The notes under the pieces: model-generated
The model's input: the letters and a program-made list of their open reading frames with translations, nothing else
Database searches by the model: none
Told to the model about the DNA's origin: nothing
Translations under genes and position numbers: made by a program
Origin: Verrucomicrobiota bacterium
Lineage (GTDB): Bacteria; Verrucomicrobiota; Verrucomicrobiia; Verrucomicrobiales; DEV007
NCBI GenBank assembly: GCA_020630975.1
Contig: JAHDID010000014.1
Coordinates: 58,579 to 122,578 of the forward strand
DNA: 64,000 bases
Direction of reading: 5' to 3'
Shown: one piece after another, positions 3,625-64,000 of the stretch
Numbering within the stretch: the first letter of the stretch is position 1
How the letters are laid out: every line of letters begins with the position of its first letter

Positions 3625-3630
3625 ACACCA

Positions 3631-9573: not shown

Positions 9574-10377
9574 ATGTTCCGCTCACTCTCCCTTATTCTA
9601 ACCCTCATTGCCATTCACTCGGTGAATGCGCAATCTTTAGACGCAAGCCGCATTGCGTCTATCATCGCTGCGGACGCTGGTCCTGGTGTAGATGCGAGTC
9701 GGTACGATGAGTACGCGCAGGGGCTCACCGTGACTCTCGAGCGACTGTCCCCAGTACAACTATATCGTGTCTTAGGCACCGATGTGGACTCTGATGATCC
9801 TATCCCAGTCAGTCTGCCTGGTGATGATCCCAACTCGCCAGCTAATAGGGATAAGCTACGACGCAAAGGCCAGTGGCTGGTCGATAGCGCTAAAGAAGTA
9901 GCAGAAGAATGGCGGGAGATCGAAGAGACGGCCAAGCGCCGAGCTGAGCGCCGCAAGCAATGGCTGGAAAAGCTCGATCGCGACTATGACGATGATAATT
10001 TTCCAAACTGGGTATGGCCATCTGCTTCCAAGGTAGCCAGCGTATTGAGGACCAGTGAGGCGGCCTATCGTGAGGCTATTGATACTATCCAGGAGCTGGA
10101 TATGAATCCTGACGACAAGTGGATCAAGGATGTGTTTAGCGAGGCCGAAGCTCGAAATAATCTAGAGCGTGCGCATGAAGACCAGATCGCCGAGAACAAA
10201 AAACTACTGAATGAACTCCGCTACGAATTTCGCAAAAATCCGACCTCCAGCAAAACCCGTCAGCTATGGCAGGCGCGATTCGACGCTCAGGAGGCTAGGA
10301 TCAAAGCGGCAATGATACTGTCTGAGAAAGAGATGGAGATCGTAAAAATGGTCGCCGAGAAGGCACTGGAGAAGTAA
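9574..10377 (+). CDS. Secreted hypothetical protein, charged and helical
   Basis: Signal peptide MFRSLSLILTLIAIHSVNAQ from ATG 9574; Glu/Lys/Arg-rich helical body. Confidence 0.7.
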   Translation: MFRSLSLILTLIAIHSVNAQSLDASRIASIIAADAGPGVDASRYDEYAQGLTVTLERLSPVQLYRVLGTDVDSDDPIPVSLPGDDPNSPANRDKLRRKGQWLVDSAKEVAEEWREIEETAKRRAERRKQWLEKLDRDYDDDNFPNWVWPSASKVASVLRTSEAAYREAIDTIQELDMNPDDKWIKDVFSEAEARNNLERAHEDQIAENKKLLNELRYEFRKNPTSSKTRQLWQARFDAQEARIKAAMILSEKEMEIVKMVAEKALEK

Positions 10378-10433
10378 ACGTTCTTCTTCTGTACGTAGCT
10401 AGATCGCAGAAGCGAGAGGCGCTACCAGACTCT

Positions 10434-10480
10434 AAAACAAATCAGGCCAGCGAGGCTAGAATCTAGCCTGCTGACCTGAT
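10434..10480 (-). terminator. Inverted-repeat terminator for the DUF1501 gene
   Basis: ATCAGGCCAGCGAGGCTAGA-A-TCTAGCCTGCTGACCTGAT, imperfect stem, with a T-rich run on the minus strand (TTGTTTTAGA). Confidence 0.65.
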
Positions 10481-10513
10481 GTGAAAGAATCGTTTAGTCG
10501 ATCTAATTTTTCT

Positions 10514-11851: not shown

Positions 11852-11883
11852 GATTCTCTTTGGAATTAGGGTTCAGTTGGTGA

Positions 11884-11922
11884 AATTCAATAGGGTACAA
11901 TTTTGATTCAATAGGGTACAAT
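11884..11922 (+). repeat. 39-bp two-box interspersed repeat, copy 2
   Basis: AATTCAATAGGGTACAATTTTGATTCAATAGGGTACAAT, 5 nt beyond the stop of the minus-strand DUF1549/DUF1553 gene. Confidence 0.88.
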
Positions 11923-11927
11923 CCGAT

Positions 11928-14147
11928 CTACTGGACGAATAGGAACTCGCGGGTGTTGACCAGGGCCCAGATGACGTCGCCGATAGCGGCTACCTCAGCC
12001 TCTGCATCGCTACGCTGGATATCGCGATCATTGCGAGCGCGCAGACCAGAGGCGGCAGCACGCTTCTCTGCAGGGTAGGGCATGCGGCCCAGTACACTGA
12101 GGAAGATCTTTTCGATCTTGTCGCCTTTCTTGCCCTCTCCATAGGCGATCTCCTTGATCAGGTAGGCATCCTTGCTAGTCAGCGCGGCATTGGTGATGCT
12201 GCCATTCAGCAGGGTCATCACCTGCGGAGTCGATCCCACAGTGGTTGCATTCTCGATTAAGATCTTGTCGGACTGGCCGAAGATCCGCAGGAAGTGATTG
12301 GCTGGCATCGGCACATCGAGCTCGGAGGCGCGCACCATCTGCTGACCACCCACGCGGCCTACCATATTGTTGCGGCCCATCATGCCCATGCCGCCGCTGC
12401 CCATCATGCCGCCCTCACCATCGGAGACTTGGCCGATGGTGCGGTGCTTCATCTTGAATTCCTCGATCTGCTCAGCAGTCGTCATGGTGGTGTAGTCCAT
12501 GTTCATCAGCTCTTTGTAGGCCTCGGCTCCGCGGCGCTGCATACGCTCGGGGTGGGCGGTGGTCAGAGTCACCATAGAGTCCCAGACCTGTTCAGCACTC
12601 ATGCGGCGCAGGATGGGGCCAGGGAAGTGGTAGGCGCCATTGTCGATCTGAGTCAGCGTCGGCGAGAGGCTCTCGGCTTTGCGCTGGTAGGTCTCAGTAT
12701 TGTAGATCACGCGGAAGAAGTCCTTCAGCGAGTACTTCTGGTCGATCATCATCTGCTCGAGGAACTGGAGTAGCGCGTAGTTCTGCGCCTGGCCGTCGAG
12801 GTGGCCAGGGATATTGTCGACTGGCTCGATCTGACCTAGGCCAAAGGCGATCTTCCACATGCGGTTCACCAGATTCACGGTGAAGCGAGGATTCGTCGGC
12901 GAAGTGATCCAGTCGGCGAAGGCCACGCGAGGAGTGGCGTGCTTTTCGATATTCACCGTATCGCCGAAGTAGGCGCCGGGGCGCACCTGCTGGTGGGGTT
13001 CGCCGTTGTCGTATTTGTAGTCGTGCGGCAGCTCCACCGTTTGGTTACCAGTGTCGTTCACATTGGTGCGATTGCTGTTGAGCATGATGCTCAGCCCGAT
13101 GTCGAATGTGGTATTCGGGCGCAGCTTGCCCGCGCGCTCCAGGATGCCGCTCATTCGCTGTGCCTCGGCACGTGGATTGAAGTCGAGACGAGTGCGGGTC
13201 TCATACTCGCCCATGAAAGAAGCCATGCGGTAGAAGTCGAGCTGCTTCACCTGCTCGAATGGGTGGTCGTGGCACTGCGCACAAGTGATCTCGGTGCCGA
13301 GGAAGACGGTGAAGGTATTCGACAGGTTGCACAGGCGCATGCCCTGATCGGTCACTAGGTAGCCAGAGGCGGGATTGTCCCAGAGGGTGCCCTCGGCAGT
13401 CAGCATCTCGGTCACGAGTTTATCGAAAGGCTTGTCAGCGCGCAGGCTGTCTTTCATCCACTCCATGTAGGAGATCGCTTTCAGGCCATTGCCCTCCATG
13501 GCCACTCCATCGCGCACGCGCAGCAGGTCGGACATGTAGTTGAACATACGCATCGCGTAGGCATCGGTCTCCAGTAGCTCATCGATCAGCTCAGCACGCT
13601 TGCTGCGCGAAGTGGAGCCGAGGAATTTGCTGGCCTCGTCGAAGGTCGGGATACGGCCAGCGATGTCTAGGTACACGCGGCGCATGAACTGCGAGTCATT
13701 GGTCTTCTCATTGGGCACGCACATCACCATCTCGCGCTCGATTTCCTCTTTTCGCTTGGCCTTCTCGGCATTGGTGAGAGTGGAGTTTTGTGGCAGCTCG
13801 GCCAGATCCTTGCGCAGGCCATAGTAGGCTTCTTTCATGCGGGCTAGCACCAGCTTGTCGATCTCGGCGGCCAGAGCGGCGGTATCGTTGGGCAGCGAGC
13901 TTTTCACAAAGATGCGGTCATCCTCGCTCAACTTAGCGATAGGGTAGTTGATGATATTGCCGTTTTCGAGCTTCAGCTTCACCGATGCGGTCGCACCAGC
14001 GCCTGCTGTGCCCACGAATTCAGCCTGTAGCTTGCGCCCGTCTGAAGAGGTCCACTCGCGCATCTGGGCCTGACTGATGCTAGGGGTGAGTAGCGATAGC
14101 AGAGCGATAGCTAGCGCAGAGCGAAGTAACGGTGTTAGATATTTCAT
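11928..14147 (-). CDS. DUF1549/DUF1553 protein with N-terminal SHD1-like domain and CxxCH motif
   Basis: Signal peptide MKYLTPLLRSALAIALLSLLTPSISQAQ; REWTSSDGRKLQAEFVG (SHD1-like); RRVYLDIAGRIPT; ITCAQCHDHPF. Start set to ATG 14147. Confidence 0.9.
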   Translation of the reverse strand: MKYLTPLLRSALAIALLSLLTPSISQAQMREWTSSDGRKLQAEFVGTAGAGATASVKLKLENGNIINYPIAKLSEDDRIFVKSSLPNDTAALAAEIDKLVLARMKEAYYGLRKDLAELPQNSTLTNAEKAKRKEEIEREMVMCVPNEKTNDSQFMRRVYLDIAGRIPTFDEASKFLGSTSRSKRAELIDELLETDAYAMRMFNYMSDLLRVRDGVAMEGNGLKAISYMEWMKDSLRADKPFDKLVTEMLTAEGTLWDNPASGYLVTDQGMRLCNLSNTFTVFLGTEITCAQCHDHPFEQVKQLDFYRMASFMGEYETRTRLDFNPRAEAQRMSGILERAGKLRPNTTFDIGLSIMLNSNRTNVNDTGNQTVELPHDYKYDNGEPHQQVRPGAYFGDTVNIEKHATPRVAFADWITSPTNPRFTVNLVNRMWKIAFGLGQIEPVDNIPGHLDGQAQNYALLQFLEQMMIDQKYSLKDFFRVIYNTETYQRKAESLSPTLTQIDNGAYHFPGPILRRMSAEQVWDSMVTLTTAHPERMQRRGAEAYKELMNMDYTTMTTAEQIEEFKMKHRTIGQVSDGEGGMMGSGGMGMMGRNNMVGRVGGQQMVRASELDVPMPANHFLRIFGQSDKILIENATTVGSTPQVMTLLNGSITNAALTSKDAYLIKEIAYGEGKKGDKIEKIFLSVLGRMPYPAEKRAAASGLRARNDRDIQRSDAEAEVAAIGDVIWALVNTREFLFVQ

Positions 14148-14337
14148 CGGGAAAGGTGAATCGAATGTGTGAAGGTGATGATGCAGTTTCAGGGAGTATC
14201 CTCCATCTTTTGCATAACACCACAGCATTAGTCTATTACAGATTTTTTGCTAATTTGTGACACTGAGCCAAAGCAATTGCTTTTAGCCGGTGGTTTTATT
14301 GGTTGAAACACCGGAACGAGCTAGGCATTGCTCTCTT

Positions 14338-16083
14338 ATGACCAATTGTTTCCGACTCGGTTCATTTTTCGTGCTGCTCGCATCCACCCTCCATGCCCAG
14401 GGCGAGATTTCTCCTGTAGCCCCTGGTGTGCCACTCAGGCATGTCATGACCGCTGAGAGTTTCGGTCTAGCCGATGGCCCTGCCTGGGATGGCTGGGCAC
14501 TGACAGTGGCTGACCCCAAGGCTGAGAAAGCAGAGCGCTATGTCCCCTCGCAAAAGGCATGGCTAGCAGGCCCCAAGAAAGGCCGCAAGTTTAGCGCCAG
14601 TTTTTACAATCACGGTCGGCTCTACTATTCGGATAATGCAGGCGGCAAGATCTTTTATCGCGAGGAGCGAAGTCAGGACGAGGTACAGGTGAGCGCAGAG
14701 GACTTGGCGCAGGACAAAACCCGCCGCCCCAATGATCTGACCGTCGATCGCAGTGGCGGCGTCTACTACACACTCACTCGAGCTGGGCAGGTCGTCTACG
14801 TGCCTAGTGGTGGTGAGCTGCGTGTCGTCGCTGACGATGCCGAGACCGCCAATGGCCTGATCCTTAGCCCCGATGAGAGTATCCTTTACGTCGCCGAGTA
14901 TGTGCCCAAAAACATCCTCGCCTACGATGTCGGGCCGGATGGCTCGCTGTCGAATCGCCGCGTGTTTGCCAAGATGGATGATGGTCAGCCCGATCTAAAA
15001 GGCGCCGATGGCATGTCTATCGATCGCGCGGGCAATGTCTACTGCGCCGGTCCAGAGGATATTTGGGTGTGGGCACCCGATGGCCAGCTGCTCGACCGCA
15101 TCGCCGTGCCCGAGCGGCCGATCAATTGTACCTTTGGCGGCACTGATCTGCGCGATCTCTACATCAGCGGCTTCGGCGGTCTATATTTGCAGCGCATGCG
15201 CATCTCAGGTGTGTCGCCTCAGCCACCAGCCCAGTGGCATCCGGAGAAAGCCAAGTCTCAGCCCAGTGTGGCCGTGCCAGATGGAGTCGAGCCGCATCTC
15301 GATCTCACCTATGCCAGCTATGGCACCCGCGACATGCTCGCCGATATCTTTGTCCCACCCGGTGATGGTCCGCATCCGGTAGCGATCATCCTCCATGGAG
15401 GTGGTTGGCACAGTGGCGATAAGATGAAGTTTCGTGCCATGGGCCTAGAGTTGGCGCGTCGCGGCTACGTGACCATGGCAGTCGCTTACCGACTGAGCGG
15501 CGAGGCCAAATTTCCTGCCAATATCCACGACTGCCACGCTGCAGTGCGCTACATCCGCGCCCATGCTGCAGACTACCGGGCAGATGCCGACCGTATCGGC
15601 GTAGTCGGCGGCTCGGCTGGAGCTCACCTAGCTGGACTACTCGCCACCACAGCCGATGTCGAGGCTCTTCACGGCGATGGTGGAAACCCCGGCGCCTCCT
15701 CCGCAGTCCACGCTGCGGTCGTCATGTCCGGCCCCATGCAGATCGCCACTGGCAGCGTAGCCGAGCGCTCGCTGATGAAGGAAAACAAGAAGCCGAATGC
15801 CATCTGGCTATTCGGCGGCAACGTCGAGGAGAAAGCCGACCTCTATCGCCTAGCCGATGCCCACGAGCACATCAGCGCCGCTACCCCGCCGATCCTTTTC
15901 CAATACGGCGGCGCCGAAGATCCCAGCAAAGTCGATCCATCTGTGAACAAACTGAAATCCCTAGGCATCGCCACCAAAGTCCTCTCCCACTACGAGGGCG
16001 GCAAACACGGCTGCTGGAATCGTCATCCGTGGTTCATGCCCATGGTCGAGGATATCGATGCTTGGTTTCAGGAGCATTTGTAG
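14338..16083 (+). CDS. SMP-30/gluconolactonase-like domain fused to an alpha/beta-hydrolase (esterase) domain
   Basis: N-terminal beta-propeller RRPNDLTVDRSGGVYYT; C-terminal ILHGGGWHSGDK and GVVGGSAGAHLAGL (nucleophile elbow). Start at ATG 14338. Confidence 0.88.
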   Translation: MTNCFRLGSFFVLLASTLHAQGEISPVAPGVPLRHVMTAESFGLADGPAWDGWALTVADPKAEKAERYVPSQKAWLAGPKKGRKFSASFYNHGRLYYSDNAGGKIFYREERSQDEVQVSAEDLAQDKTRRPNDLTVDRSGGVYYTLTRAGQVVYVPSGGELRVVADDAETANGLILSPDESILYVAEYVPKNILAYDVGPDGSLSNRRVFAKMDDGQPDLKGADGMSIDRAGNVYCAGPEDIWVWAPDGQLLDRIAVPERPINCTFGGTDLRDLYISGFGGLYLQRMRISGVSPQPPAQWHPEKAKSQPSVAVPDGVEPHLDLTYASYGTRDMLADIFVPPGDGPHPVAIILHGGGWHSGDKMKFRAMGLELARRGYVTMAVAYRLSGEAKFPANIHDCHAAVRYIRAHAADYRADADRIGVVGGSAGAHLAGLLATTADVEALHGDGGNPGASSAVHAAVVMSGPMQIATGSVAERSLMKENKKPNAIWLFGGNVEEKADLYRLADAHEHISAATPPILFQYGGAEDPSKVDPSVNKLKSLGIATKVLSHYEGGKHGCWNRHPWFMPMVEDIDAWFQEHL

Positions 16084-49774: not shown

Positions 49775-50110
49775 ATGGTTCTGACCAAACCGATTCCCTT
49801 CATAATTATTTTCACTCTCTTCCTTTTGACTTCTTGTGATCACACCAAGAAGCCAGCAGAAGAAGTTGAGTCTCTCCCTTCAACAACTCTTGTGGTTGAT
49901 GATCAGCAGCAGGTTCTGCATTTTCGTATCGATGGGATGACATGCCCTACCAAATGCGTAGGGAAGGCTCGAAAGGCTTTGTCTTCGATATCTGATGCCA
50001 CGGAGATAGTAGTCGATATGCCGGATATCGGCTCGGTATCAGGGCCGGTGGGGCAAGACCAAATCATCAAAGTTCTGGGTGAGGCTGGATTCGCTGTCAC
50101 CATGTTGTAG
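49775..50110 (+). CDS. Small lipoprotein with HMA-like domain (CxxxC)
   Basis: FLLTSCDH lipobox; LHFRIDGMTCPTKCVGKARKALSSISDATEIVVDMPD. Confidence 0.8.
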   Translation: MVLTKPIPFIIIFTLFLLTSCDHTKKPAEEVESLPSTTLVVDDQQQVLHFRIDGMTCPTKCVGKARKALSSISDATEIVVDMPDIGSVSGPVGQDQIIKVLGEAGFAVTML

Positions 50111-50145
50111 CTCCATTGAGCTAGCCAATTCAACTTTTCAATTCA

Positions 50146-53100
50146 ATGTCAGGTAATCACACTTTCTTACACAGACGTTTAAACCTTCTCCTAGGTTTGT
50201 GGATTTGCAGTTTCCTTCTAGCTAGTCTAGGAGCTTCAGAGGAGACTCAAAGTTGGTTGGTGACCACGCCGACTGGTTTCTACACCGATACTAAGACTAG
50301 CGATGGTGTGGCGCTGCGGATTAGCACCGATGCTCCTGGCTTCTCCGAGGAGAGCGATCAGGTGGCTAGTTATCTGACTCGATGTCAAGATGATTGCGAG
50401 GTGAGGGTTGCCATTTCAGAGGTAATTGGTCCGGATCTAGGTTTTGCTGGTGTGCAAGTGCGTTCAGGTGAGGGTTTACAGAAGCCATTTGTGTTTCTAG
50501 GTAGTAATTCCCAGGGTGAAATGGGGATTTTTTATCGTCGAGAGGTAGGTGGAGAGTTGATTGTGAGGAAGTTTAGTGTGGGTCAGATCCCTGCTCAGAT
50601 TTCAATCAAGGTCAAAGGTTCGAGCGCGTACCTCGCATCTAGCTTCGACGGGTTGACTTGGGTTTCCCACGGCCAGATTAATACCGATTTCTCCGGTCAT
50701 TTGTTTGCAGGAGTGTCAATTTTCTCTGGGAATGACGGCGAATTTTCCACGGCTGAGTTTGGATCTATCGTTTGCAGAAAGCCGGGATTGATTCACCAAG
50801 ACATTAGCAGGCAGGATTTTTCAGAACCGGTTGCTTATCAAACACCAGGTGCAGGGCGTTTTCATTTCTTTGCTCAGACACCCGATGGGTTTACAGGGAC
50901 AGTGGATGCCGCTTTGACCCGTTCGTCAGGATCGGTGAAGACGCAGGTTGATGTTTTTGATCTACCCGGGGTTAGTCTTCCCGTTCTTGAAATGGAAACG
51001 GTGTCGCCCGAGTCAGTTTCCGTGGAGTTATCTCTTGATTCACAGGGGCAGTTTGCAGCAGTTCGCGGGCTATTTTATAATCCACCTCGATGGAAGTTGT
51101 CAGAGAATGTACAGCATCGCTTCCAGGGCGATGCTGAGTGGCTCGAGAGTGGTGTGGTATCTGGTGATAGAGAGGGGGCTCTGTCGGATACGGAGATTCT
51201 ATATGATGGCGGAGTTACTTGGGTAGCCGATCGTGGGGCTGGCGATAGCTCAGTGGGCTTGTTCAGTACGGCGTCTAGCACATCTTATAGTGTGCGATTT
51301 TCTCAAGGTGTGTATCATGTTCAGCATTCTGGTTCATCAGGACCAGGGCGTTCATTTGAGTCAGGTGATGTTTTTTCGATCGAGCGTGTAGGTGGTTATA
51401 TAGTGTTTCTTCACAATGGTCGTCACTTGATTACAGTAGAGGCGGCTAGGGAACCGCTATCGCCTTATGTTGGGATGCTTGGCTCATATGCTAAAGTCCG
51501 CTCGGTGAGTGTATTTGGTGCAAGCATTCCAGGGGATCGCGATGGCGACGGTATAGATGATGGGGTTGAGCAGGGTTTGTTTTCCTTACTTGAGGTAAAT
51601 TCAGTGTTCGATGTCAGTAGCAGTGATGTGAAAAATTCTGCTACTGTATCCAGTTCGACTGACAATGAGAAGGCGACCGTTGCGGCATCCTCTCCTGTCG
51701 CTAAAGCTTCGCAATCAGTTGATAATTGGTTGGCGGTGACGTGGGAAAATAGAGTTGGGACTGCAGTTAGCGAGGGGATAGTTGGCTCCAATTTGCAAAG
51801 GTCAGCCTCTAGTCAGGGTTGGGGGTCGAGTGGGGCCGCCAGTTACCGGCGGTTAGTTGGTGAGGGTAAGTTACAAGTTGTTCCGGGGCAAATCGATGCT
51901 TACCGGATGATCGGCTTCTCAGCAGACGATGTTAATGCGGATTATCGAGATATCGAGTACGCTCTATATTTCGCTATCAATGGTAGTCTGAAGATTTACG
52001 AGGGTGGCACATACCGAGGCACCTTTGGGACTTACGCAGCAGATGATATTTTCGAGATTCGCAGGGATTCGCTAGGCGCTATTTCTTACTGGCAGAATGG
52101 TACAAATTTCTACACTTCCACTCGGTCAAGTGCGGGTGAGCAATTGATGGTGGACACATCATTTTACACATCGAATTCGAGGGTCACGGAGGTGAGATGG
52201 ACCGGTTCAGTTGATCTTAGAGATTGGAGGCCTGTAGTGTGGAGCTACCCTCAAGGGGTTTCTTCTTCGGAGGGTAGTACGGGTTCTGCGATTCAGCGCA
52301 CGGCTGGAGGGAATAACTGGGGTTCAAGCGGGGCCGTTAGTCTCTATCGTATGCCTGGGGCGGGTGCGGTACAGTTTCAGCCTGGCGAGGTAAATACTCA
52401 TCGCATGATCGGCCTGGGAGTGGCTAATGCTTCAGAGAGTTATCAGGATATCGAGTACGCTATCTTTTTGGCGACCAGTAGTCGCTTGTATATCTATGAG
52501 GGTGGCGCTTCTAGAGGTGGATTTGGTAGCTACAATGCTGACGATGTGTTTGAGATACGGCGTGCAGCGAATGGGCAGGTCAGCTATTGGCGTAATGGTT
52601 TGCTGTTCTACACGTCGACTCGTTCCAGTGCTGGTGAGACATTGTTGGTGGACGCAAGTCTTTACACGGGTGGCTCTCAGATTACTGAAGTTCGGTGGTG
52701 TGGAGTGGATGATTGGATTCCGGTAGAGTGGCAGCAGGTGATTGGTGCCACGTCTTCTCTAGGCTCCAAAGGGTCCGATTTGCAGCGTTCTGCCAGTGGT
52801 AATAACTGGGGTGGGAGTGGGGCTATTAGTATGAGGGCTATGCCCGGAGCTGGAGAGTTACAGGTGGTTCCAGGTGCCACCAATGCTTACCGTATGATTG
52901 GTCTTGGTGTTTCTAATGATAGTGCTGATTACCGGGATATTGAGTATGCGTTGTACTTCTCTATTAATGGTGGGCTCAAGATTTATGAGAGTGGTGTGTA
53001 TCGTGGTACATTTGGTAGCTACACGGCAACTGATGTGTTCGAAGTTCGGCGAGATGATGCTGGCGAGGTCACTTATTGGAAGAATGATGCGAAATTCTTC

Positions 53101-56100
53101 ACATCGCCACGCCTTAGTTCGGCGGAAAATCTATTTGTCGACACATCATTCTACACGGCTGCTTCCAAGGTGACGGAAGTGCGTTGGCGAGGACAGACTG
53201 CGCTTTTTGAAAACGATGGCGATCTCGATGATGATAACATCCCTGACGAGTTCGAAGAGTCATTGTTTGCGGCTATGGGGGTGACCTCGATCTACGATAT
53301 TAATCCTGGTGACGATTTTGATAATGATGGTGTTAGCAATTATCAGGAGTATTTGGACGGCACCAGCTTAATCGATTCGGCTGATTTCCGTGACTGGGTG
53401 CCTGTCGATTGGCAGAGTATAGTAGGTGCTTCGCCTTCAGCGGGTAGTGTTGGTAGCAATCTTCAGCGTTCTGCATCGGGTAGTAGTTGGGGGGCGAGTG
53501 GAGCAGTTAGTCAGCGCTACCTTCCTGGCGCAGGGTCGCTTCGAGTGATCCCTGCAGAGACCAACACATATCGTATGATAGGTTTGGGAGTATCGAATGA
53601 CAGCGCTGACTACAGAGATATCGAGTATGCCTTGTTTTTCGCGATCAATGGCGGGTTGCGGATCTATGAGAGCGGTTCGTACCGTGGCGCGTTTGGCTCT
53701 TACTCGGCAGACGACGTGTTTGAGGTGCGCAGGGATGACGCTGGTTTGGTCACCTATTGGAAAAATGGTGCTAAATTCTACACTTCGACTCGCTCCAGTG
53801 CTGGCGAGACTCTGATTGTGGACACATCGTTGTATTCAGCCAATTCACAGGTGACAGAGGTGCGTTGGAGCGGCGCGGTGTTGCCCCCAGAGCGAGATTG
53901 GGTTCCAGTGGATTGGGAAGCCCTAGTTGGTTCGGTGTCGTCTACAGGAGTTGATGGTACCAATTTGCAGCGCACAGCTGGAGGTAGTAGCTGGGGGGCA
54001 AGTGGGGCGGTGAGTCAGCGTTACTTGCCTGCAGAGGGTGTGCTTCAGGTTATTCCAGGAGAGACGAGCACCTACCGCATGATCGGATTTGGAGTAGGGA
54101 ATGATAGTGCTGACTACAGAGATATCGAATATGCCCTATTTTTTGCTATTAATGGCAGTCTGAGAATTTATGAAAACGGGACTTATCGCGGAGCATTTGG
54201 CTCCTACACTGCGGGTGATGTTTTTGAGATTCATCGCGACGCTGATGGAGAGGTTTCCTATTGGAAAAACAATGGCAAAATCTACACTTCGACTCGCTCC
54301 AGTGCTGGTGAGCGATTGATTGTCGATACATCGCTTTATACCAGCAGCTCAAAGGTCACAGAAGTTCGTTGGGAGGGGGCGGTTATGCCTGAGATCGATT
54401 GGGTGCCTGTAGAGTGGCAGTCTCTCATCGGGGTCACAGCCTCTTCTGGTTCAGAGGGCACGAATTTGCAGCGATCTGCGGCAGGCAGTGGCTGGGGTGG
54501 GAGCGGTGCTATCAGCAAGCGCTTCATGGCAGGCGAGGGGCGTCTGCAGGTGATTCCAGCCGAGACCAATACTTATCGAATGATTGGTTTGGGAGTATCA
54601 AATGATAGCGCTGACTACAGGGATATCGAGTATGCGTTATACTTCGCGATTAATGGTGTTTTGCGGGTCTACGAGAGCGGTGCTCACCGTGGTGCTTTTG
54701 GTAGTTATTCGTCGGGCGATGTTTTCGAGATTCGCCGCGATAGTGCGGGGCGGGTGACCTATCAAAAAAACGGTGTGATCTTCTACACTTCCGCGCGATC
54801 CAGTGCGGGTGAAAAATTGTTCGTCGACACATCGTTTTATTCGGCGAATAGCAGGGTCAGTGAGGTGCGTTGGGCTGGGGCAGATTATGATTGGTCGCCA
54901 GTCGAGTGGACCGCTGTGTCAGAGTCCGTTGCTACAGCAGGTACGGATGGCAGTAATCTTCAAAGCACTGCCGCCAGTAGTGGTTGGGATATCAGTGGCG
55001 CTATTAGCGCCCGTCACATGCCAGGTGCTGGCGGGCTTCAGGTTATCCCAGGGCAGTCAGATGCCTTTCGCCTCGTTGGTCTGAGTGTTCGGGGTGCTGC
55101 ACCCACACACGAAGGCATAGATTATGGATTGTTCTTCCGCGACGACGCCACTCTTCAGATTTACGAGGGCAATACCCTGAAAGGCTCTTTCGGCACTTAC
55201 ACAGCCGATGATGTGTTTGAGATCTGTCGCACCACAGATGGTCAGCTTTCTTACTGGAAAAACGGCACCAAATTCTACACATCGGATCGCGCTAGTATCG
55301 ATGAGTCGTTGATGGTTGATGCGTCGTTCTACACAGCTGGTTCTCGTCTCACTGAATTGCGCTGGCACGGGTCTGACTATGATTGGACTCCAGTCGCTTG
55401 GCAGGATCTTGTCGGGGCGGTAGCCTCTGATGGAGTAGATGGTACGGATCTCCGGAGAACGGCTGGCGGGAGTAGTTGGGGAGCTAGCGGTGCGATTAGT
55501 CAGCGTATTATGCCCGGCGAGGGTGCTCTGCGAGTGATACCTGGCGCTACCAATACCTATCGCATGATTGGTCTGGGTGTTGACAATTCAAACAACAGTT
55601 ACACTGATATTGAGTACGCGTTGTTTTTCGCCATTAATGGAGCTCTTCGTATTTATGAAAGCGGTTCGTACCGAGGTGCTTTTGGTACTTACAGTAGTAG
55701 CGATGTTTTTGAAATCCGTCGAGATGCAGAAGGTCAAGTCACTTACTGGAGAAATGGGATTTTGTTCTACACTTCGGCTCGATCGAGTGCAGGCGAGGAG
55801 TTGATAGTCGATACTTCTCTTTACACAGCTAGCTCTGCCGTGACAGAGGTGCGTTGGCGTGGTGTTCGATTCCCTGGACCAGTAGACTCAGATGGCGATG
55901 GTCTTACGGACGATCTCGAGGCTCAGTTCGGCACTAACCCGAACAATCCTGATTCTGACGACGATGGTATCGGCGATTTCGTTGAGTACGAAGCATCCTT
56001 GATCGATCCAGGCTTAGACACGGATGGCGACGGTATATCCGATCAAGTCGAGCGACTGCTCGGAACTAATTCAGAGAGTAGTGAGTTTGCTGATGATGAG

Positions 56101-56157
56101 ACTCGCATTGATGGATTCAGCACAAGGCTCCGGGTTTTTACTCCAGTCGCTCTGTAG
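50146..56157 (+). CDS. Giant (2003 aa) secreted repeat protein with eight ~165-aa repeats and Ca-binding (TSP3-like) Asp-rich segments
   Basis: Signal-like N-terminus LLLGLWICSFLLASLGAS; eight copies of NLQR..SGWG.SGA...R..PG.G.LQVIPG.TNTYRMIGLGVSNDSADYRDIEYALFFAINGSLRIYESGSYRGAFGSY.ADDVFEIRRD..G.VTYWKNG..FYTSTRSSAGE.LIVDTSLYT..S.VTEVRW; Asp-rich DGDGLTDDLEAQFGTNPNNPDSDDDGIGDF. Confidence 0.92.
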   Translation: MSGNHTFLHRRLNLLLGLWICSFLLASLGASEETQSWLVTTPTGFYTDTKTSDGVALRISTDAPGFSEESDQVASYLTRCQDDCEVRVAISEVIGPDLGFAGVQVRSGEGLQKPFVFLGSNSQGEMGIFYRREVGGELIVRKFSVGQIPAQISIKVKGSSAYLASSFDGLTWVSHGQINTDFSGHLFAGVSIFSGNDGEFSTAEFGSIVCRKPGLIHQDISRQDFSEPVAYQTPGAGRFHFFAQTPDGFTGTVDAALTRSSGSVKTQVDVFDLPGVSLPVLEMETVSPESVSVELSLDSQGQFAAVRGLFYNPPRWKLSENVQHRFQGDAEWLESGVVSGDREGALSDTEILYDGGVTWVADRGAGDSSVGLFSTASSTSYSVRFSQGVYHVQHSGSSGPGRSFESGDVFSIERVGGYIVFLHNGRHLITVEAAREPLSPYVGMLGSYAKVRSVSVFGASIPGDRDGDGIDDGVEQGLFSLLEVNSVFDVSSSDVKNSATVSSSTDNEKATVAASSPVAKASQSVDNWLAVTWENRVGTAVSEGIVGSNLQRSASSQGWGSSGAASYRRLVGEGKLQVVPGQIDAYRMIGFSADDVNADYRDIEYALYFAINGSLKIYEGGTYRGTFGTYAADDIFEIRRDSLGAISYWQNGTNFYTSTRSSAGEQLMVDTSFYTSNSRVTEVRWTGSVDLRDWRPVVWSYPQGVSSSEGSTGSAIQRTAGGNNWGSSGAVSLYRMPGAGAVQFQPGEVNTHRMIGLGVANASESYQDIEYAIFLATSSRLYIYEGGASRGGFGSYNADDVFEIRRAANGQVSYWRNGLLFYTSTRSSAGETLLVDASLYTGGSQITEVRWCGVDDWIPVEWQQVIGATSSLGSKGSDLQRSASGNNWGGSGAISMRAMPGAGELQVVPGATNAYRMIGLGVSNDSADYRDIEYALYFSINGGLKIYESGVYRGTFGSYTATDVFEVRRDDAGEVTYWKNDAKFFTSPRLSSAENLFVDTSFYTAASKVTEVRWRGQTALFENDGDLDDDNIPDEFEESLFAAMGVTSIYDINPGDDFDNDGVSNYQEYLDGTSLIDSADFRDWVPVDWQSIVGASPSAGSVGSNLQRSASGSSWGASGAVSQRYLPGAGSLRVIPAETNTYRMIGLGVSNDSADYRDIEYALFFAINGGLRIYESGSYRGAFGSYSADDVFEVRRDDAGLVTYWKNGAKFYTSTRSSAGETLIVDTSLYSANSQVTEVRWSGAVLPPERDWVPVDWEALVGSVSSTGVDGTNLQRTAGGSSWGASGAVSQRYLPAEGVLQVIPGETSTYRMIGFGVGNDSADYRDIEYALFFAINGSLRIYENGTYRGAFGSYTAGDVFEIHRDADGEVSYWKNNGKIYTSTRSSAGERLIVDTSLYTSSSKVTEVRWEGAVMPEIDWVPVEWQSLIGVTASSGSEGTNLQRSAAGSGWGGSGAISKRFMAGEGRLQVIPAETNTYRMIGLGVSNDSADYRDIEYALYFAINGVLRVYESGAHRGAFGSYSSGDVFEIRRDSAGRVTYQKNGVIFYTSARSSAGEKLFVDTSFYSANSRVSEVRWAGADYDWSPVEWTAVSESVATAGTDGSNLQSTAASSGWDISGAISARHMPGAGGLQVIPGQSDAFRLVGLSVRGAAPTHEGIDYGLFFRDDATLQIYEGNTLKGSFGTYTADDVFEICRTTDGQLSYWKNGTKFYTSDRASIDESLMVDASFYTAGSRLTELRWHGSDYDWTPVAWQDLVGAVASDGVDGTDLRRTAGGSSWGASGAISQRIMPGEGALRVIPGATNTYRMIGLGVDNSNNSYTDIEYALFFAINGALRIYESGSYRGAFGTYSSSDVFEIRRDAEGQVTYWRNGILFYTSARSSAGEELIVDTSLYTASSAVTEVRWRGVRFPGPVDSDGDGLTDDLEAQFGTNPNNPDSDDDGIGDFVEYEASLIDPGLDTDGDGISDQVERLLGTNSESSEFADDETRIDGFSTRLRVFTPVAL
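51721..55866 (+). repeat. Eight in-frame ~490-504-bp repeats inside the 2003-aa ORF
   Basis: The conserved Trp codon at each repeat start lies at about 51727, 52225, 52714, 53395, 53899, 54400, 54892 and 55384. The 681-bp step between units 3 and 4 contains an Asp-rich TSP3/EF-hand-like insert. Confidence 0.9.
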
Positions 56158-56187
56158 GTTAACCAAGTATTTATTAACTTAACTGGT

Positions 56188-59100
56188 ATGAGAAGTTATA
56201 TTTGTCCTTTTGTGTGGTTGCGTGGGTTTGTTCATCAAACCTTGAGACGGGTTAGATTAGTTTTGTCCTTATTAATAGCTTTTGTTTTCTCTATTGAGGC
56301 TTGGGCCGCCGATTATACAGCGATCGGAGTCGATATTGAAAAAATAGGTGAGCATACTGTTTTCACTACAGGTTATTTAGCGCGTGTTACTGTCCATCTT
56401 TCTTCTGAGTTATCTGCCGGCACATATGGTGCCTCAGGTGTCGGATTTTATTGGGATTCAAATGGCTATCAGTCAAGAAGCTATGGCGGTAACGTGAATC
56501 CGGATTCCATTGTTTATGATCCAGATAGTCTGACATTGACTTTTGAAGAGTATTTTCATGAGGCTGCAGAATGGACCTCAGTCACGCGCAGAAACCCAAC
56601 AGATAGGGCTACGCAGACGAAATCGCGGAGCGATCAGTTAAGTTTGTTTGGCCCGGAAGGAGTGCTCGATAGTGTGATTGCAGAGGTTCAGGGGTCTGGG
56701 ACGTACATTCATGACCCCAATGTTCCTGATCCTTATTGGAGTGCCAGCAGAGGCGCTGTGTTTCTTGCTGAGTTCGATATTCACTTATTTTGGGATGGTC
56801 CACCTAGCGACCCTCGGCCTGGCAGTGATGCGGCCAATTTTCAGGTAATTCCTAAATTTACAGAGGTCCCCATCACAGGAGACTCAAACCTAGAGGTAGC
56901 GACCGTCACCTCGGTTCAGCCCGGAGCCTCTTTTTCGTTCGCTTCTGATGCCCCGGATTTGGCCTCTCCGCTAAACAGCGGTGTTGGCACCACTCCTGGT
57001 GATGCGCTTTTTGATGTGCCAGGACTTAGCTCAATCGATCATGAGAGGTTCTACTCATATAGCAAGATCACAACGACAACAGTCCAAAACAAAGCAATCA
57101 ATCTCTACCGCAAATCTGCCGGATACGAGTTCACTCGCCAGCCTTCGATCGACAGTTTCGGCAAATTATGGCTGCAATTCAAAATGGGTGAACACGTTTC
57201 ATCCGAGAATGTGAAGGTTCTCTACCGCGTTGAGGGCACTCCAGATCCTTGGACGGAAGTTCCTGAATTGGTTGATGCCTTACAAAACTTCACTCCTGGT
57301 GAATATAGCCTTTCCTGGAATGCCAACTCCCTCCTTCATAACTCCACGGAGGGACAGCGGTTTTTGATTCGAATCGAAGGAACAACCGATGTGGCGGGTT
57401 CGGTATTCGGAGATATTTCTGAGCCCTTCGACCTATCCGAAGCCTGTGGCTGCACCGATACTTGTGCGCCAGGAGTCACCGTATCCAAGATCGGCTCAGT
57501 CGATTATTCCGTCAGCCTCGGCACGTCGTCACTTAACAGGAACTACGGTTCTCTAGATATCCGCCAGGAGACGGCCGACCCGATTCTCGGCACGGCTCAT
57601 TCGCTGAATGTGGGTGCTAGAAATGGCGCAGAACTCTACCCTGCAGCTTCAGGTGCCGCGGCCGATCCGACCGCCCCTGTCAGCCGACAGATCCTTACCG
57701 ATGCAGCTCTCTTCCATATCACCGATCCGGATGCCACCGATGATACTTGGCAGATCCTCGCTTACGATCGCGATACCCAGCTAGGCACCTACGACCTAGC
57801 CAGCGATCTCTACGACCAGTCGGGCAAGACAGCTTTCCAGACCATCACCTTCGCTCTCGAGCGCGATGAGGATAGCGATATCCAGCGTTTCCGCATCACC
57901 GAGGCGGGCTCCTTTGGCGATCGCGTGCACCTCTACCATTGGCAGAATGTCGATGGCGCCTATGGCTGGACACTCGACCAGATCGATCCCACCCATGGCC
58001 ATCTGCGCTCGATCCGTGTCAGCGAGACCGACTACGATGCCAATGGCATCAAGACCAAGGAGAAGCAGATCCTCGAGGCCGACGGCACGTTGGTTTCCAA
58101 GACCATCACCACTATCAAAGCTTTTCCCTTTGGCGAAAAGACCACCAGTGTTCAGCGCTTCAATATCGCCGCTGGAGCCGAGACGGGCTCGCAGACCACC
58201 TACTACACTTACCATGAGACAGAGGGTCAGCCTGGCTACGGTCTGGTCGACGAGATGTACACCGACTACGATAGCACCTGGACGCAGTCGATCTACGGTG
58301 CCGATGGCCTCGCCGAGGTCCACACCACCTATCTCGATGCTGGTCGCGGTACTGCTGCTGGCGAGCACCGTGTGACTTACCACAGCTACGCTAGTGGCGA
58401 GTATGGCCTAGGTGCCACCGTAGACACTGCCAAGATCACCACCACCTCCCTAGCAGGTACCGTCACCTCTCGTCAGGTCAGTGTCTGGTACGGCGACGAG
58501 ATCGCCATCACCCTACCCAGCGGCGAGCCTTGCACCTACCGCGAGCGTTGGGACATATCGCTTCTCGATCCTGCCATCGATACGGTAGCCGGCGCCCTAG
58601 CAGCTGGGGAGAATGCTCTGATTACCAAGACCCGCACCTACTCCAGCGGCAGCTACCAGGGCCTGACCCACAGCATGATCTACCCAGATGGTACCGGCAC
58701 CATCACTCACTACGATGGTAGCGAGACCACCACTCGCACTGGTCAGCTCTCTGGCGATGGCTTGTCACTCGTCGATGGCACGCGCGAGGTCACCCTAGCC
58801 AATAGCCACGGCCACACCATGGCCAGCCAGACCTATGCCGAGCCAGAGGGGCTGCTCATCGCCCAGCAGCTCACCATGGCTACCGACGGCCTCGGTCGCC
58901 CCACTCACATCCAGCACCTCGGCGGCCTCAGTAGCTACGCCGCCTACGACTGCTGCGGACTCACTAGCGAGACCAATGTGCGCGGCGTCACCACCAGCTA
59001 CACCCGCGATATGCTAGACCGGGTACGTACCAGCACTAGGCTCGGCGTTACCACCACTTACACGCACGATGCCCTTGGCCGCGTGCTCACCCAGGCCGAC

Positions 59101-62100
59101 TCTGGCGGTGCGCTAGCCATCACCCGCAGCACTCTAGTCACCGATAGTCTGGGGCTGAATCGCTCTGTGTCCGATGCCCTCGGCCGCACCACTGCCACCG
59201 CTGTCACTTATGTCGATAGCCGCCGCGTCACCACTACCACTCAGGCCGATGGCTCGACTATCGTCACCGCCAGCTATGCCGATGGCCGGGCGAAATCCGT
59301 CACCGGCACCGGGGCGCTGCCACACCGCTTTGCCTACGGCATCGAGCAGCCAGCGGGAGCCCCGAGTGCCCAGCAGTCCACCACCCGCTACGTGCTCGCA
59401 GCCGATGGCAGCAGCGACACTGGCGAGTGGACCAAAAGCTACTCCGATGCCCTCGGTCGCCGTTGGAAGACCGAGTCCTCCTCTGGCGCAGGTAGCACCA
59501 GTCTCTACAATACCCTCGGCCAAATGGTCAGCACTAGCGATACCGATGGTGTGACCACTCTCTACGCCTACAACGATCGCGGTCAGCGCAGCCACACCGC
59601 TATCGATATCGATCGCAATGGCCAGATCGATTTTGGCGGCACCGATCGCATCACCGGCACCACTTACGCTGTCGCCCAGCGCGATGGCACCACAGTCAAT
59701 CGCACCACCTCCAGCATCTGGCGCGACGATATCGGCGAGCAGCAGCTCACCGTTAGCGATCAGGCGGTCGATGGTTTGCAGAGCTGGTCGACTACCGATG
59801 GCATCACCAGCCACCAGCAGACCAGCATCACCGGCGGCGGAGCCTGGACCGTCACCCAGACTCGAGGCGATACCTCTACCACCACCCAGACTTTCGTCAG
59901 TGGTCGCCTACAGAGCGAGGTAGTCGCCACCGGTGGCGGCACCACCATCAGCTCCACCACCTATGCGTGGGATGACCTAGGCCGCCTCGATACCTCTACC
60001 GATGCCCGCACCGGCACCACCACCTACGCCTGGTACGATAGCGATGAGCTGCAGAGCGTGACCACCCCGGCCCCTGGCTTAGGCGGAGGTGCAGCGCAGA
60101 CCACCTCCTTTACCTACGATGCTCTCGGTCGCACCGATATCACCACCCTGCCCGATGCCACCACTGTCGATACCGACTACTACACCACCGGTCTGGTGCA
60201 GCGCGTCTCTGGCTCGCGCACCTACACCCGCGAGTATGGCTACGACTCAGCAGGGCGTCAGACCACTCTCACCACCAATCCCGGCACCGCCGATCAGCAG
60301 ATCACTTCCTGGACGATCAACCCCGTCACTGGTCGTCTCGATGATAAAAAGATCGCCGGTGCCCTCGCCTCTAGCTACACCTACACCACCGCAGGTCGCC
60401 TAGACATCCGCACCAATGCCCGCGGCACCGAGATCGACTATGGCTATAATAACGCTGGCCAGGTCGATAGCATCACCTACTCAGATGGCATCACCTCGGC
60501 GGTCGCCTTCACCCACCGTCGCAGTGGCGATATCCACACCGCTACCCACGCCGGCTCCACCTACACTTACGAGTATGGTTTACCCGGCGAGCTAGAAAAG
60601 ACCACCGTCTCCGGTGGCACGTTAGACGGTGTCATCATCGACCCCGGCTACGATGCCCTACACCGCCGCGATACCCTAGCGGTATCCCCCGGCGCACTCG
60701 CCCAGAGCTGGACCTACGAGCCCGGCAGCTCGCGCCTGCAGACAGCCAGCCAGGGCGACCACACCGCCACCTATGGCTATGTGGCCGATTCCGCGCTAGT
60801 CGGCACCATCACCCACGCGGCCGCTGGTACCAATCGCCTAGTCGATACCCGCACCTACGACAACCTCAATCGCCTGCACTCCATCGTCGGCACCGATCCA
60901 GCAGCGGCCAATGCGGTGATCAAATCTTTCACCTATGGGTACAATGCCGCCAACCAGCGCACCCGCATCGATCGCGAAGATGGCACCCACTGGCACTACG
61001 GCTACGATACCCTCGGGCACCTGGATATAGCCGAGCGCAGGCTGGCCGATGCCACTCCGCTAGCTGGTCACCAGTTCGACTACAGCTACGATGCCCTCGG
61101 CAATCGCCAGACAGCTAGCCACGGCGGCGATCCCTCTGGCGGCAGCCTACAGACCACCAGCTACACACCGCAGACCAGTGGCGATCGCAATCAATACGCC
61201 ACCATCGGCTACCCTGGAGCGGTCATCACCACCGGTCGGGCCGATGCAGCCGCAGCAGTTACGATCAATGGTCAGCCTGCAGCCCATCGCCAGGGCGAGT
61301 ATTTCTCGCACCAGGATGCGGTCGACAACAGCGCTGGTCCAGCCAGCTTAGAGCTAGAAGTCACCGCCACCCTCGGCGATGCTAGCGATACCATCACCCG
61401 CAGCGAGCTAGTGGTGATGCCCGCCAGCACCACCCGCGCGCACGATCTCGATGGTAACCTAACCTTTGATGGCTACCACGACTACACCTGGGATGCCGAG
61501 AATCGCCTACTCTCCGTGCAGACCCGCGCCGGCCTAGCGCCACGCGGCTCGCCCGAGTATCGAGTCGAGTACACTTACGACTACATCGGTCGCCGCATCC
61601 ATCGCAAGGCCACTCGCAAGCTAGGCAACGAGTGGTACCGCTCAGACGAGCGCCGCTACGTCTACGATGGCTGGAATATCGTGCTAGAGCTAGGCGGCCA
61701 AGAAGGAGCGCTCACCCAGCCCTGGCAGAGCTACCTGTGGGGCACCGACCTCAGCGGCAGCGCGCAAGGCGCAGGCGGAGTTGGCGGCCTACTCGCCATC
61801 CACAAGCACAACGGCGATCGCCCCGGCAGCCATTGCGTCAGCTACGATGGCAACGGCAACGTTGCTGCCCTGATCGACACAGCCGACGGCAGCCTATCGG
61901 CCAGCTACGAGTACGACCCCTTCGGTCGCACCATCGACATGAGCGGCCCCTTCGCCGCCAACAACCCGTATCGCTTCAGCACCAAGCCAGTGGACCGGGA
62001 TACTGGTTTCTATGACTACGGCTATCGTCATTATGATCCACAGAATGGAAGGTGGTTGAGTCGCGATCCGATCGCTGAAGATGGTGGGTTTAATCTGTAT

Positions 62101-62949
62101 GGGTTCGTGGGAAATGATCCGGTGAACTCGGTGGATGTGCTCGGGATGGAGCCAAAGGGCGATCCAAAGGGAAACTTATGGCAATGGATAGTTCACCGTA
62201 GTCACAACCCTAGAGATCTAATGGCAGAAGCGGATGCGGGCACAATGATGACCGCTCAGGCAGATTTTCAAGAAAAGGTGAGTGATGAGGTGCTGCCTGC
62301 AGCAAATACAGTGCTTAAAACTACCGCCGAGATTCAAAGTCCAGACCCTACCGCTGAAGTGGCTATTGTAGGAGCTGCGGTTGGAGCAGGGTTTAAACTC
62401 GGTGGAGACGTGGTTTTACCGTGGCTGAAAAAATTATTCAGCGGTAGAAAGGCCAATCAGGAATGTGAGATAAAGGATTTTGATCACTTTGGAGGTGAGT
62501 TCCTCGATGACATTCCTTTTACCAATCCTCCTCTTCCAAAGAGACTTTTCGATAACGATGTGCTGGTAGCAGCTTCGAACTATCCAACATCAAGAAAAGG
62601 TCAAGCTGCACTAGAGCTGCTAAAGAATAGCAATGCTCAGATTACCCCTAATCAGCTACGAGAGTTCATAGGATTTAAAGGAATTTCAGCTTCTCAGTTA
62701 AAAGCAAGGAAAGCATTTTTAGAACAGCACAATATAAGTGTCATAGACGGTGCCACGTTATCTCAAGGTAGTGATTTTAGGTCGGTTTTTAACTCAGTTG
62801 TTAAAGACCAGGGTAGAGGTGATGCTGCTTTGGCTGGATTCGCAAAAGAAACCGGGTTTGAAGCAGTCACATTCGAAAAGCGTTTATTTAATTTTATTAC
62901 AAAAACTCTTAGAGATGATACTGTTCCTATAACTCGAATTATTCCGTAA
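56188..62949 (+). CDS. Secreted RHS/YD-repeat protein with C-terminal PIN-like putative toxin (2253 aa)
   Basis: Signal peptide ([17 protein letters not shown]); many YD repeats ([24 protein letters not shown]-type); conserved RHS core [14 protein letters not shown]...[60 protein letters not shown]. Confidence 0.95.
   Translation: [2253 protein letters not shown]
62149..62949 (+). other. Variable C-terminal region of the RHS protein; PIN-like nuclease candidate at about 62530-62949
   Basis: Begins right after the conserved RHS core. [11 protein letters not shown] (compare DTNVL) and [29 protein letters not shown] (compare the D...A...G...vTrD..F of VapC/PIN). Family assignment by eye. Confidence 0.65.
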
Positions 62950-62954
62950 GTAAT

Positions 62955-63257
62955 ATGGGTCTCTATAATACAATTACTTGTTGTTTGCCCTGCCCGCATT
63001 GCGACGAGACAACAGAACATGAGGTTGAGTCTAAGTTTGGGAAATTAAATTTGATTGAGTACTCAATTGGAGAAAAAGTGTGTTGGACTAAATGCGATAG
63101 TGTTAAAAATGGCGGTAAACCCGCTACCCCTGAGAGCTCATTTGAGGGGTATACACAATGTAGTAACTGTAACAAAGATTTTTTTGTAAAAGTAATAATT
63201 TGTGACGATATAATATCGAAAGTAGTCCCAGATGCATCAAGAAATGGGTTTATATAA
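62955..63257 (+). CDS. Putative immunity protein for the RHS toxin, Cys-rich (zinc-ribbon-like)
   Basis: MGLYNTITCCLPCPHCDETTEHEVESKFG...KVCWTKC...YTQCSNCNKDFFVKVIICDD; starts 5 nt after the RHS stop. Confidence 0.65.
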   Translation: MGLYNTITCCLPCPHCDETTEHEVESKFGKLNLIEYSIGEKVCWTKCDSVKNGGKPATPESSFEGYTQCSNCNKDFFVKVIICDDIISKVVPDASRNGFI

Positions 63258-63316: not shown

Positions 63317-63648
63317 CGCAAGCGCTGGGAATAATGGTGATGTAAAAGGTGAGAGGTAGATTGAGGGAAAGATATCAACCCATCTTAAATTGCTCTGCTC
63401 TGGTCGGCTCTATTCTTCGACTAACGCACTGCTCGCAAGCGCTGGGGCCGAGTCTCTAGGGTAAGTCACCCGGGCAACGTTAAGGTTGGCAAGAATAAGG
63501 GGTCAGGTGTAAAAATAAGGGGTCGGGACATCTTATTTGACATTTGGTAATGTTAGGGCCACTTCTTGGCCGTAACTGGACTACCCGAGTCACGTTCCCT
63601 ACCGGTCACCATGCAACGCAAGCGCTGGGGCCGAGTCGTTAGGGTAAG
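63317..63648. repeat. Degenerate repeated motif CGCAAGCGCTGGGGCCGAGTCNNTAGGGTAAG
   Basis: 32-bp copies at 63434-63465 and 63617-63648, and a shorter copy (CGCAAGCGCTGGG) at 63317-63329. Confidence 0.75.
63494..63550 (+). repeat. Two-box element AATAAGGGGTC x2 (20-bp spacing), REP/transposon-end-like
   Basis: AATAAGGGGTCAGGTGTAAAAATAAGGGGTCGGGACATCTTATTTGACATTTGG. Confidence 0.6.
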
Positions 63649-63951
63649 GTCCGGGTGTTGGCGTGCTCTCTCTGGGCTAACGCCCAGCCGCCCGCCGAAC
63701 CGCCAGCCTGGTCCGGCTCACCCTCTAACTGCTCCGGCATGGCGAGTGGGCGTTTGGCGCGCCAAACTAGCACCCTTCGGGTGGTTGGGTTTGGGTACCC
63801 ACTCTCCAGCCTGCGCGCCCAGCAGCTTTGCTGGGCTATCGCCCGCTGATAGGCTTCGTAGACAACGGCCTGCCTCCCTCCTTCGCTAGCTACGGCGGAC
63901 AGGCTCTATCGGTCGGGAATGGATCGGCTACGGCCTACGCTGCGGGGTATG

Positions 63952-64000
63952 AACCGAAAGCATAGGTAACACTTGAACCGGCAACATGGGTAACAGTTTT
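63952..64000 (-). mobile_element. Possible end of an insertion sequence at the window edge
   Basis: ACCGAAAGCATAGGTAACACTTGAACCGGCAACATGGGTAACAGTTTT has two AT(A/G)GGTAAC(A) boxes 24 bp apart, the arrangement of transposase-binding boxes at IS ends. Truncated by the window; no transposase seen. Confidence 0.45.

What the first reader, a model, noticed from the sequence alone, without database searches (positions are those of the whole stretch)
49775..63257. Four-gene exported cassette: HMA-like lipoprotein, eight-repeat giant protein, RHS with PIN-like tip, Cys-rich immunity candidate
Seen: four same-strand ORFs with gaps of 35, 30 and 5 nt. Three carry export signals. The RHS protein ends in a non-core, PIN-like tail and the last ORF is a small Cys-rich protein. 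Known: RHS proteins deliver variable C-terminal toxins and are followed by cognate immunity genes. Inference: the giant repeat protein and lipoprotein act as surface anchor or delivery partners of a Sec-exported RHS toxin in a PVC bacterium, an arrangement distinct from T6SS-linked Rhs.
Basis: partly seen in the sequence, partly recalled or inferred. Interest (0 to 1): 0.85.

Follow-up and report, generated by a model that had tools for sequence, protein, structure and literature searches.

The report
RHS toxin with giant adhesin-like partner
A bacterium, probably of the order Verrucomicrobiales, carries a secreted RHS-type antibacterial toxin with a swappable tip and a probable antidote gene, directly after a giant protein of eight repeats shaped like animal SPRY domains; in relatives the two are neighbours or fused, so the giant protein is probably part of the weapon, although no function has been tested.

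Summary
The four ORFs, their gaps and the eight repeats are real. Genes 2-4 form a Sec-exported RHS polymorphic-toxin locus. GC falls from 62% (RHS core) to 39% (tip) and 37% (candidate immunity gene). A second locus in the genome matches the core up to the core/tip junction, then carries an unrelated tip. The 35 tails compared are nearly all unrelated. One homologue of the immunity candidate lies among SUKH-1, DUF4259 and DUF6714 genes. The T6SS sheath gene VipB was not found.

The 161-aa repeats match no Pfam or NCBIfam family; the predicted fold (pLDDT 94) is SPRY/B30.2-like. The domain is rare (4 of 388 phylum genomes), yet at 6 of 9 readable loci it lies directly upstream of, or is fused to, an RHS protein. 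I read it as the toxin's surface partner. The HMA lipoprotein is not part of this linkage.

The tip is weakly PIN-like; a 2012 survey said PIN is not used in polymorphic toxins. Unexpectedly, a repeat element headed by AATAAGGGGTC follows the tip-immunity pair at 5 of 7 RHS loci here; this head is absent from 1.17 Mb of sampled background. It may be the 3' arm for tip exchange. New variant of a known kind.

The parts
49775..50110 (+). HMA-domain lipoprotein, CxxxC site; probably NOT part of the system
   Evidence: PF00403 above cut-off; homologues not beside RHS
50146..56157 (+). 2003-aa exported giant protein: N-terminal region, eight SPRY-like repeats, TSP3 segment
51724..52206 (+). SPRY-like repeat 1
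52222..52704 (+). SPRY-like repeat 2
52711..53193 (+). SPRY-like repeat 3
53392..53874 (+). SPRY-like repeat 4 (modelled, pLDDT 94)
53896..54378 (+). SPRY-like repeat 5
54397..54879 (+). SPRY-like repeat 6
54889..55371 (+). SPRY-like repeat 7
55381..55863 (+). SPRY-like repeat 8
55876..56076 (+). TSP3 (Ca-binding type) segment, aa 1911-1977
   Evidence: PF18884, 6.8e-9; region matched in relatives
56188..62949 (+). 2253-aa exported RHS protein
   Evidence: PF05593, TIGR03696; signal peptide by inspection
61912..62148 (+). RHS-associated core domain (aa 1909-1987), end of shared sequence
   Evidence: junction with C16 copy
62149..62949 (+). variable tail; last 140 aa (62527-62949) are the PIN-like tip, GC 0.39
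62955..63257 (+). immunity candidate, 100 aa, zinc-ribbon-like, GC 0.37
   Evidence: position; homologue among SUKH-1/DUF4259/DUF6714 genes
63491..63945 (+). AATAAGGGGTC-headed repeat element shared behind tip-immunity pairs

Best explanation
Genes 2-4 are an interbacterial polymorphic-toxin locus. Both large proteins cross the inner membrane by Sec (inferred from signal peptides). The RHS protein folds as a shell around its tip, which is cut off after the core (inferred from the family). The giant protein displays eight SPRY-like binding domains and a Ca-binding-type TSP3 segment at the cell surface and binds the RHS shell or the target cell, so that toxin release depends on contact (inferred; the tie to RHS is supported by neighbourhoods and fusions in relatives). 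The tip is most likely a PIN-type RNase acting in the target cytosol, and the 100-aa zinc-ribbon-like protein neutralises it in the producer (position, GC and homologue context shown; activity not). Tip-immunity pairs are exchanged by recombination between the shared RHS core on the 5' side and, probably, the shared AATAAGGGGTC element on the 3' side (junction and element shown; the process inferred).
For: RHS core and repeats. C16 copy matches the core at 92% DNA identity to the core/tip junction, then is unrelated. 35 distinct tails with one weak tail-tail match. GC 0.62 core, 0.39 tip, 0.37 immunity candidate. Immunity homologue in a region with SUKH-1, DUF4259, DUF6714. Repeat domain upstream of RHS in G046 and G080 and fused to RHS in G073, G076 and Verrucomicrobium sp. 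BvORR106. SPRY-like fold. No T6SS VipB. Element behind 5 of 7 RHS loci, its head absent from 1.17 Mb background.
Against: No wet-lab data. Repeat domain occurs without RHS at three readable loci. The tip scores below Pfam's PIN cut-off, its model is poor, and hhalign gives 3.9% probability. One immunity homologue (G524) has no toxin or immunity genes recognised beside it. No outer-membrane exit route was identified.
Confidence: 0.55

Rival explanations
1. The giant protein is an independent surface adhesin or carbohydrate-binding protein that happens to precede an ordinary RHS toxin-immunity pair; there is no functional complex.
For: The repeat domain stands alone in Nannocystis sp. RBIL2, G080:C6 and G076:C1. 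SPRY-like and TSP3 modules are common in generic surface proteins. Foldseek also reports lectin-type sandwiches (Emp46/47, calreticulin) below SPRY.
Against: In a domain found in only 4 of 388 phylum genomes, 6 of 9 readable loci are adjacent to or fused with RHS.
Confidence: 0.3
2. The tip is not a PIN nuclease but another, undescribed toxin fold, with the immunity protein still cognate.
For: Below the Pfam cut-off; no significant structural match; hhalign 3.9%. Toxin tips diverge quickly.
Against: PIN HMM from own-genome PINs: 8.2 bits, reached by 1 of 2684 scored shuffles, best other tail 1.7. PIN/VapC entries dominate the top, though non-significant, fold matches. Acidic residues D2122, E2159, D2212 lie in PIN-like order (by inspection; positions).
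Confidence: 0.35
3. The AATAAGGGGTC element is an ordinary dispersed repeat that gathers at contig ends and repeat-rich loci, with no role in tip exchange.
For: Four of the five element-bearing loci lie near contig ends; an 83-bp piece of the element's later part occurs elsewhere. IS200-like transposases near RHS cassettes in relatives suggest simple insertion.
Against: The element's head is absent from 1.17 Mb of background that includes many contig ends. The C114 copy is internal to its contig. All five copies have the RHS orientation and lie 46-299 bp after the downstream ORF.
Confidence: 0.4
4. The locus is a decayed or silent RHS element and no active weapon.
For: Several other RHS loci of this genome are fragments with stops.
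Against: All reading frames here are open over 2003, 2253 and 100 aa.
Confidence: 0.08

Closest known systems
Rhs and CDI polymorphic toxin-immunity systems (Poole 2011, PMC3150448; Zhang 2012, PMC3482391)
   Same: Conserved core, variable AT-rich tip, small downstream immunity gene, displaced tip-immunity modules elsewhere in the genome
   Different: Linked giant SPRY-like repeat protein; PIN-like tip; repeat element behind the cassettes
Sec-exported WapA of Gram-positive bacteria (S. suis, PMC12704120)
   Same: RHS protein with signal peptide, upstream partner genes, no T6SS
   Different: No cell-wall-binding domain, SecF-like or sortase gene seen; the partner is a giant repeat protein
T6SS-linked Rhs effectors
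   Same: RHS core and toxin tip
   Different: Signal peptide instead of PAAR; no VipB in the genome
SPRY/B30.2 domains (DDX1, TRIM, RanBPM)
   Same: Predicted beta-sandwich fold, TM 0.72
   Different: No sequence-level family match; bacterial, tandem, exported; about 15% identity
VapC-type PIN toxins
   Same: Weak profile similarity and order of acidic residues
   Different: Tip of an exported RHS protein; immunity candidate is zinc-ribbon-like, not a VapB-like antitoxin
YD-repeat proteins in the Akkermansia outer-membrane proteome (PMC4960237)
   Same: RHS/YD proteins at the outer membrane in the same phylum
   Different: No partner protein or tip exchange described in the passages read

Membership tests
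RHS polymorphic toxin system | RHS/YD repeats and RHS-associated core | tested here: met
   PF05593 8.7e-7, TIGR03696 6.7e-23
RHS polymorphic toxin system | Tip varies abruptly after the conserved core | tested here: met
   C16 copy junction; 35 distinct tails; GC drop
RHS polymorphic toxin system | Small immunity gene directly downstream | tested here: met
   5-nt gap; position only, plus homologue context
RHS polymorphic toxin system | Tip is toxic and neutralised by the cognate immunity protein | not testable with these tools
   needs expression
T6SS-linked Rhs effector | T6SS in the genome, PAAR or VgrG link | tested here: not met
   VipB absent; no PAAR. Genome 96% complete, one marker only
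WapA | Signal peptide plus cell-wall-binding region | tested here: not met
   Signal by inspection; no cell-wall-binding family in Pfam
PIN domain (PF01850) | Profile score above the curated cut-off | tested here: not met
   14.6 against 23.6 bits
PIN domain (PF01850) | PIN fold with acidic cluster | tested here: inconclusive
   model pLDDT 58; non-significant PIN matches; HMM control favourable
SPRY/B30.2 | Sandwich fold | tested here: met
   pLDDT 94 model; best PDB matches SPRY, E 2.7e-6
SPRY/B30.2 | Sequence-profile match | tested here: not met
   no Pfam match; so 'SPRY-like', not SPRY
HMA domain (PF00403) | Score above cut-off and CxxC metal site | tested here: inconclusive
   Score met; site is CxxxC, and homologues have TGA-xxx-Cys there

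The most novel reading that the evidence does not exclude
A two-component Sec-exported contact weapon: an array of SPRY-like domains is the dedicated surface and delivery partner of an RHS toxin whose tip is a PIN RNase, a class reported as unused in polymorphic toxins, and whose tip-immunity cassettes are exchanged between two homology arms, the RHS core and a dedicated 3' repeat element, possibly with help from IS200-like transposases seen beside such cassettes in relatives.
Probability: 0.2. Interest if true: 0.82.

Novelty: new variant of a known kind. Interest (0 to 1): 0.6.

Why it matters
How RHS toxins are delivered without a T6SS in bacteria with an outer membrane is open. A rare exported repeat domain that is sometimes a neighbour of, sometimes fused to, RHS proteins names a concrete, testable partner. 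A PIN tip would contradict the 2012 survey statement that PIN nucleases are not used in polymorphic toxins (PMC3482391). The shared 3' element offers a testable explanation of how a tip and its immunity gene move together.

Tried and rejected
Tip relatives were sought in 289 phylum genomes, PLSDB plasmids, IMG/VR and GTDB contigs: none. Immunity relatives in plasmids, phages and IMG/VR: none; two in the order. PADLOC: no match. PDB sequence searches of tip and immunity candidate: chance hits only. Rfam: nothing. T6SS delivery was rejected. Integron attC-like cassette ends for the 3' element were considered by eye and dropped for lack of convincing core sites. The HMA lipoprotein as a delivery partner was rejected for lack of linkage. 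A hand-written regex for RHS cores missed most loci and was replaced by an alignment-based cut.

Full report
OBSERVATION. The four ORFs, gaps and strands are exactly as reported. The window is C93:58579-122578 of a 7.14 Mb, 158-contig genome that is 96% complete, and the window end is the contig end. The giant protein has eight repeats of exactly 161 aa, at aa 527-687, 693-853, 856-1016, 1083-1243, 1251-1411, 1418-1578, 1582-1742 and 1746-1906, then TSP3 repeats. The RHS protein has the RHS-associated core at aa 1909-1987. Export signals are judged from the sequence. The order Verrucomicrobiales is an inference from the named relative Verrucomicrobium sp. BvORR106 and the relatives list; the genome itself is unnamed.

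THE REPEAT DOMAIN. No Pfam or NCBIfam family matches it. An alignment of 29 copies gave an AlphaFold2 model with mean pLDDT 94.2 and pTM 0.90, an all-beta sandwich. Its best PDB matches are SPRY/B30.2 domains (DDX1 E 2.7e-6, TM 0.72; TRIM9, TRIM67, RanBPM). SPRY domains are usually protein-binding modules (own knowledge), so a binding role is inferred. The giant gene has no second copy in the genome, and the domain is rare: 4 of 388 genomes of the phylum at E 1e-6.

LINK TO RHS. Repeat protein directly upstream of an RHS gene on the same strand: this window; G046:C300 (L084, 9629-11365 then 3099-9566); G080:C18 (L131, 2391-8351, then RHS 8300-14602, then a 172-aa lipoprotein-like ORF). Same polypeptide: G073:C4 (L086, 4907 aa: repeats, TSP3, a weak transglutaminase match, DUF6531, RHS core, tail, then a SUKH-1 gene); Verrucomicrobium sp. 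BvORR106 (L134, 4913 aa; similar to G073, so probably not independent); G076:C3 (8885-aa frame, L089 and L132). A weaker case with one gene between is G050:C16 (L090). Without RHS in view: G076:C1, G080:C6 and Nannocystis sp. RBIL2. Cut by contig ends: G080:C22 and a Planctomycetota MAG (L136). So 6 of 9 readable loci are RHS-linked. I did not compute a formal probability.

TIP AND IMMUNITY. GC is 0.62 in the core, 0.47 in the linker, 0.39 in the last 140 aa and 0.37 in the downstream ORF. A second RHS in the genome (C16) matches window 60803-62121 at 92% DNA identity and is then unrelated; its tip and its Cys-containing downstream ORF differ. After the core, 35 distinct tails from this genome and relatives show only one weak tail-tail match. 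Another tip of this genome is a Peptidase M76 domain. The immunity candidate has a 37% identical full-length homologue in G278 (L169), in a region with SUKH-1, DUF4259 and DUF6714 genes, and another in G524 with no RHS or recognised immunity genes beside it. SUKH proteins are listed as immunity proteins in PMC3482391.

PIN QUESTION. Pfam PIN scores 14.6 bits, below its cut-off of 23.6. A PIN HMM built from 17 PIN proteins of this genome scores the tip 8.2 bits; 1 of 2684 scored shuffles reaches this, and the best other tail scores 1.7. A single-sequence model is poor (pLDDT 58); its PDB matches are not significant, though VapC/PIN entries are frequent among the top ranks. hhalign gives 3.9% probability. 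I put PIN at about 0.6. Zhang et al. [quoted passage not shown] The literature searches found no RHS-PIN report, but the library is partial.

DELIVERY. T6SS VipB is absent. YD-repeat proteins were detected in the Akkermansia outer-membrane proteome (PMC4960237). In S. suis the RHS/WapA toxin is Sec-exported and two upstream neighbours, SecF-like and SrtB, are reported as needed for export (PMC12704120), a precedent for partner genes upstream of a Sec-exported RHS. How the toxin would cross the outer membrane here is unknown.

THE 3' ELEMENT. About 455 bp behind the immunity ORF (63491-63945), headed by AATAAGGGGTC, recurs behind the tip and downstream ORF, in RHS orientation, at C16, C9 and C128, and in a shorter form (about 55 bp, repeated) at C114; a 99-bp piece lies at C149 and none at C47. 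In C9 the head reads slightly differently. In C16 copies also lie upstream of the RHS fragment (L018 25-185), so that cassette is flanked on both sides. Sampling 1.17 Mb of the same genome, with many contig ends, gave no AATAAGGGGTC and one 83-bp match to a later part. In relatives, an IS200-like Y1 transposase gene lies directly downstream of the cassette in G073 and G076:C3 and one gene further in G040. The element may be the 3' homology arm for cassette exchange, the core being the 5' arm; this is inference. Poole et al. describe displaced tip-immunity modules whose homology is bounded by a conserved upstream sequence (PMC3150448).

HMA LIPOPROTEIN. It passes Pfam's cut-off, but with a CxxxC site. 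Several homologues in this and other genomes carry in-frame TGA where the first Cys would be, as selenoproteins do (compare NF041115). None was seen next to RHS, so I leave it out of the system.

VERDICT. A real RHS polymorphic-toxin locus, ordinary in kind for the phylum, with three unusual features: a SPRY-like giant partner tied to RHS, a possible PIN tip, and a repeat element shared behind tip-immunity pairs.

Noticed in passing
window 63491-63945; L018 3455-3914 and 25-185; L020 983-581; L021 8426-8766; L022 5041-5170: Repeat element headed by AATAAGGGGTC behind the tip-immunity pair at 5 of 7 RHS loci of the genome, same orientation; head absent from 1.17 Mb of sampled background; flanks the C16 cassette on both sides.
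   Followed up: partly
L086 1675-2733, L132 5784-6113, L092 11757-12788: IS200-like Y1 transposase genes directly downstream of (L086, L132) or one gene beyond (L092) RHS tip-immunity cassettes in three relatives.
   Followed up: partly
window 49775-50110; L166, L167, L168: HMA lipoprotein with CxxxC site; homologues have in-frame TGA at the first Cys (UxxxC), apparently a selenoprotein-type HMA lipoprotein family with unusual spacing.
   Followed up: partly
L097 8138-10132, 10917-13307, 14899-15546 (G020:C45): Three short RHS proteins in tandem, the first two keeping a signal-peptide-like start, a short core and different tips.
   Followed up: no
L023 3433-4680 (G000:C47): RHS fragment whose tip is a Peptidase M76 family domain, followed by a small exported-looking ORF.
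   Followed up: no
window 63946-63990 and L204 11-55: The last 45 bases of the window recur exactly at the start of contig C36, probably the end of a mobile element at which the assembly broke.
   Followed up: no
L135 9236-11944 (Nannocystis sp. RBIL2): Stand-alone protein of five SPRY-like repeats in a myxobacterium, without RHS in the 20 kb held.
   Followed up: no
L087 5708-10054 and 3308-5668 (G076:C1): SPRY-like repeat/TSP3 protein followed by a TSP3 protein with a weak transglutaminase match, resembling the N-terminal half of the L086 fusion without RHS.
   Followed up: no
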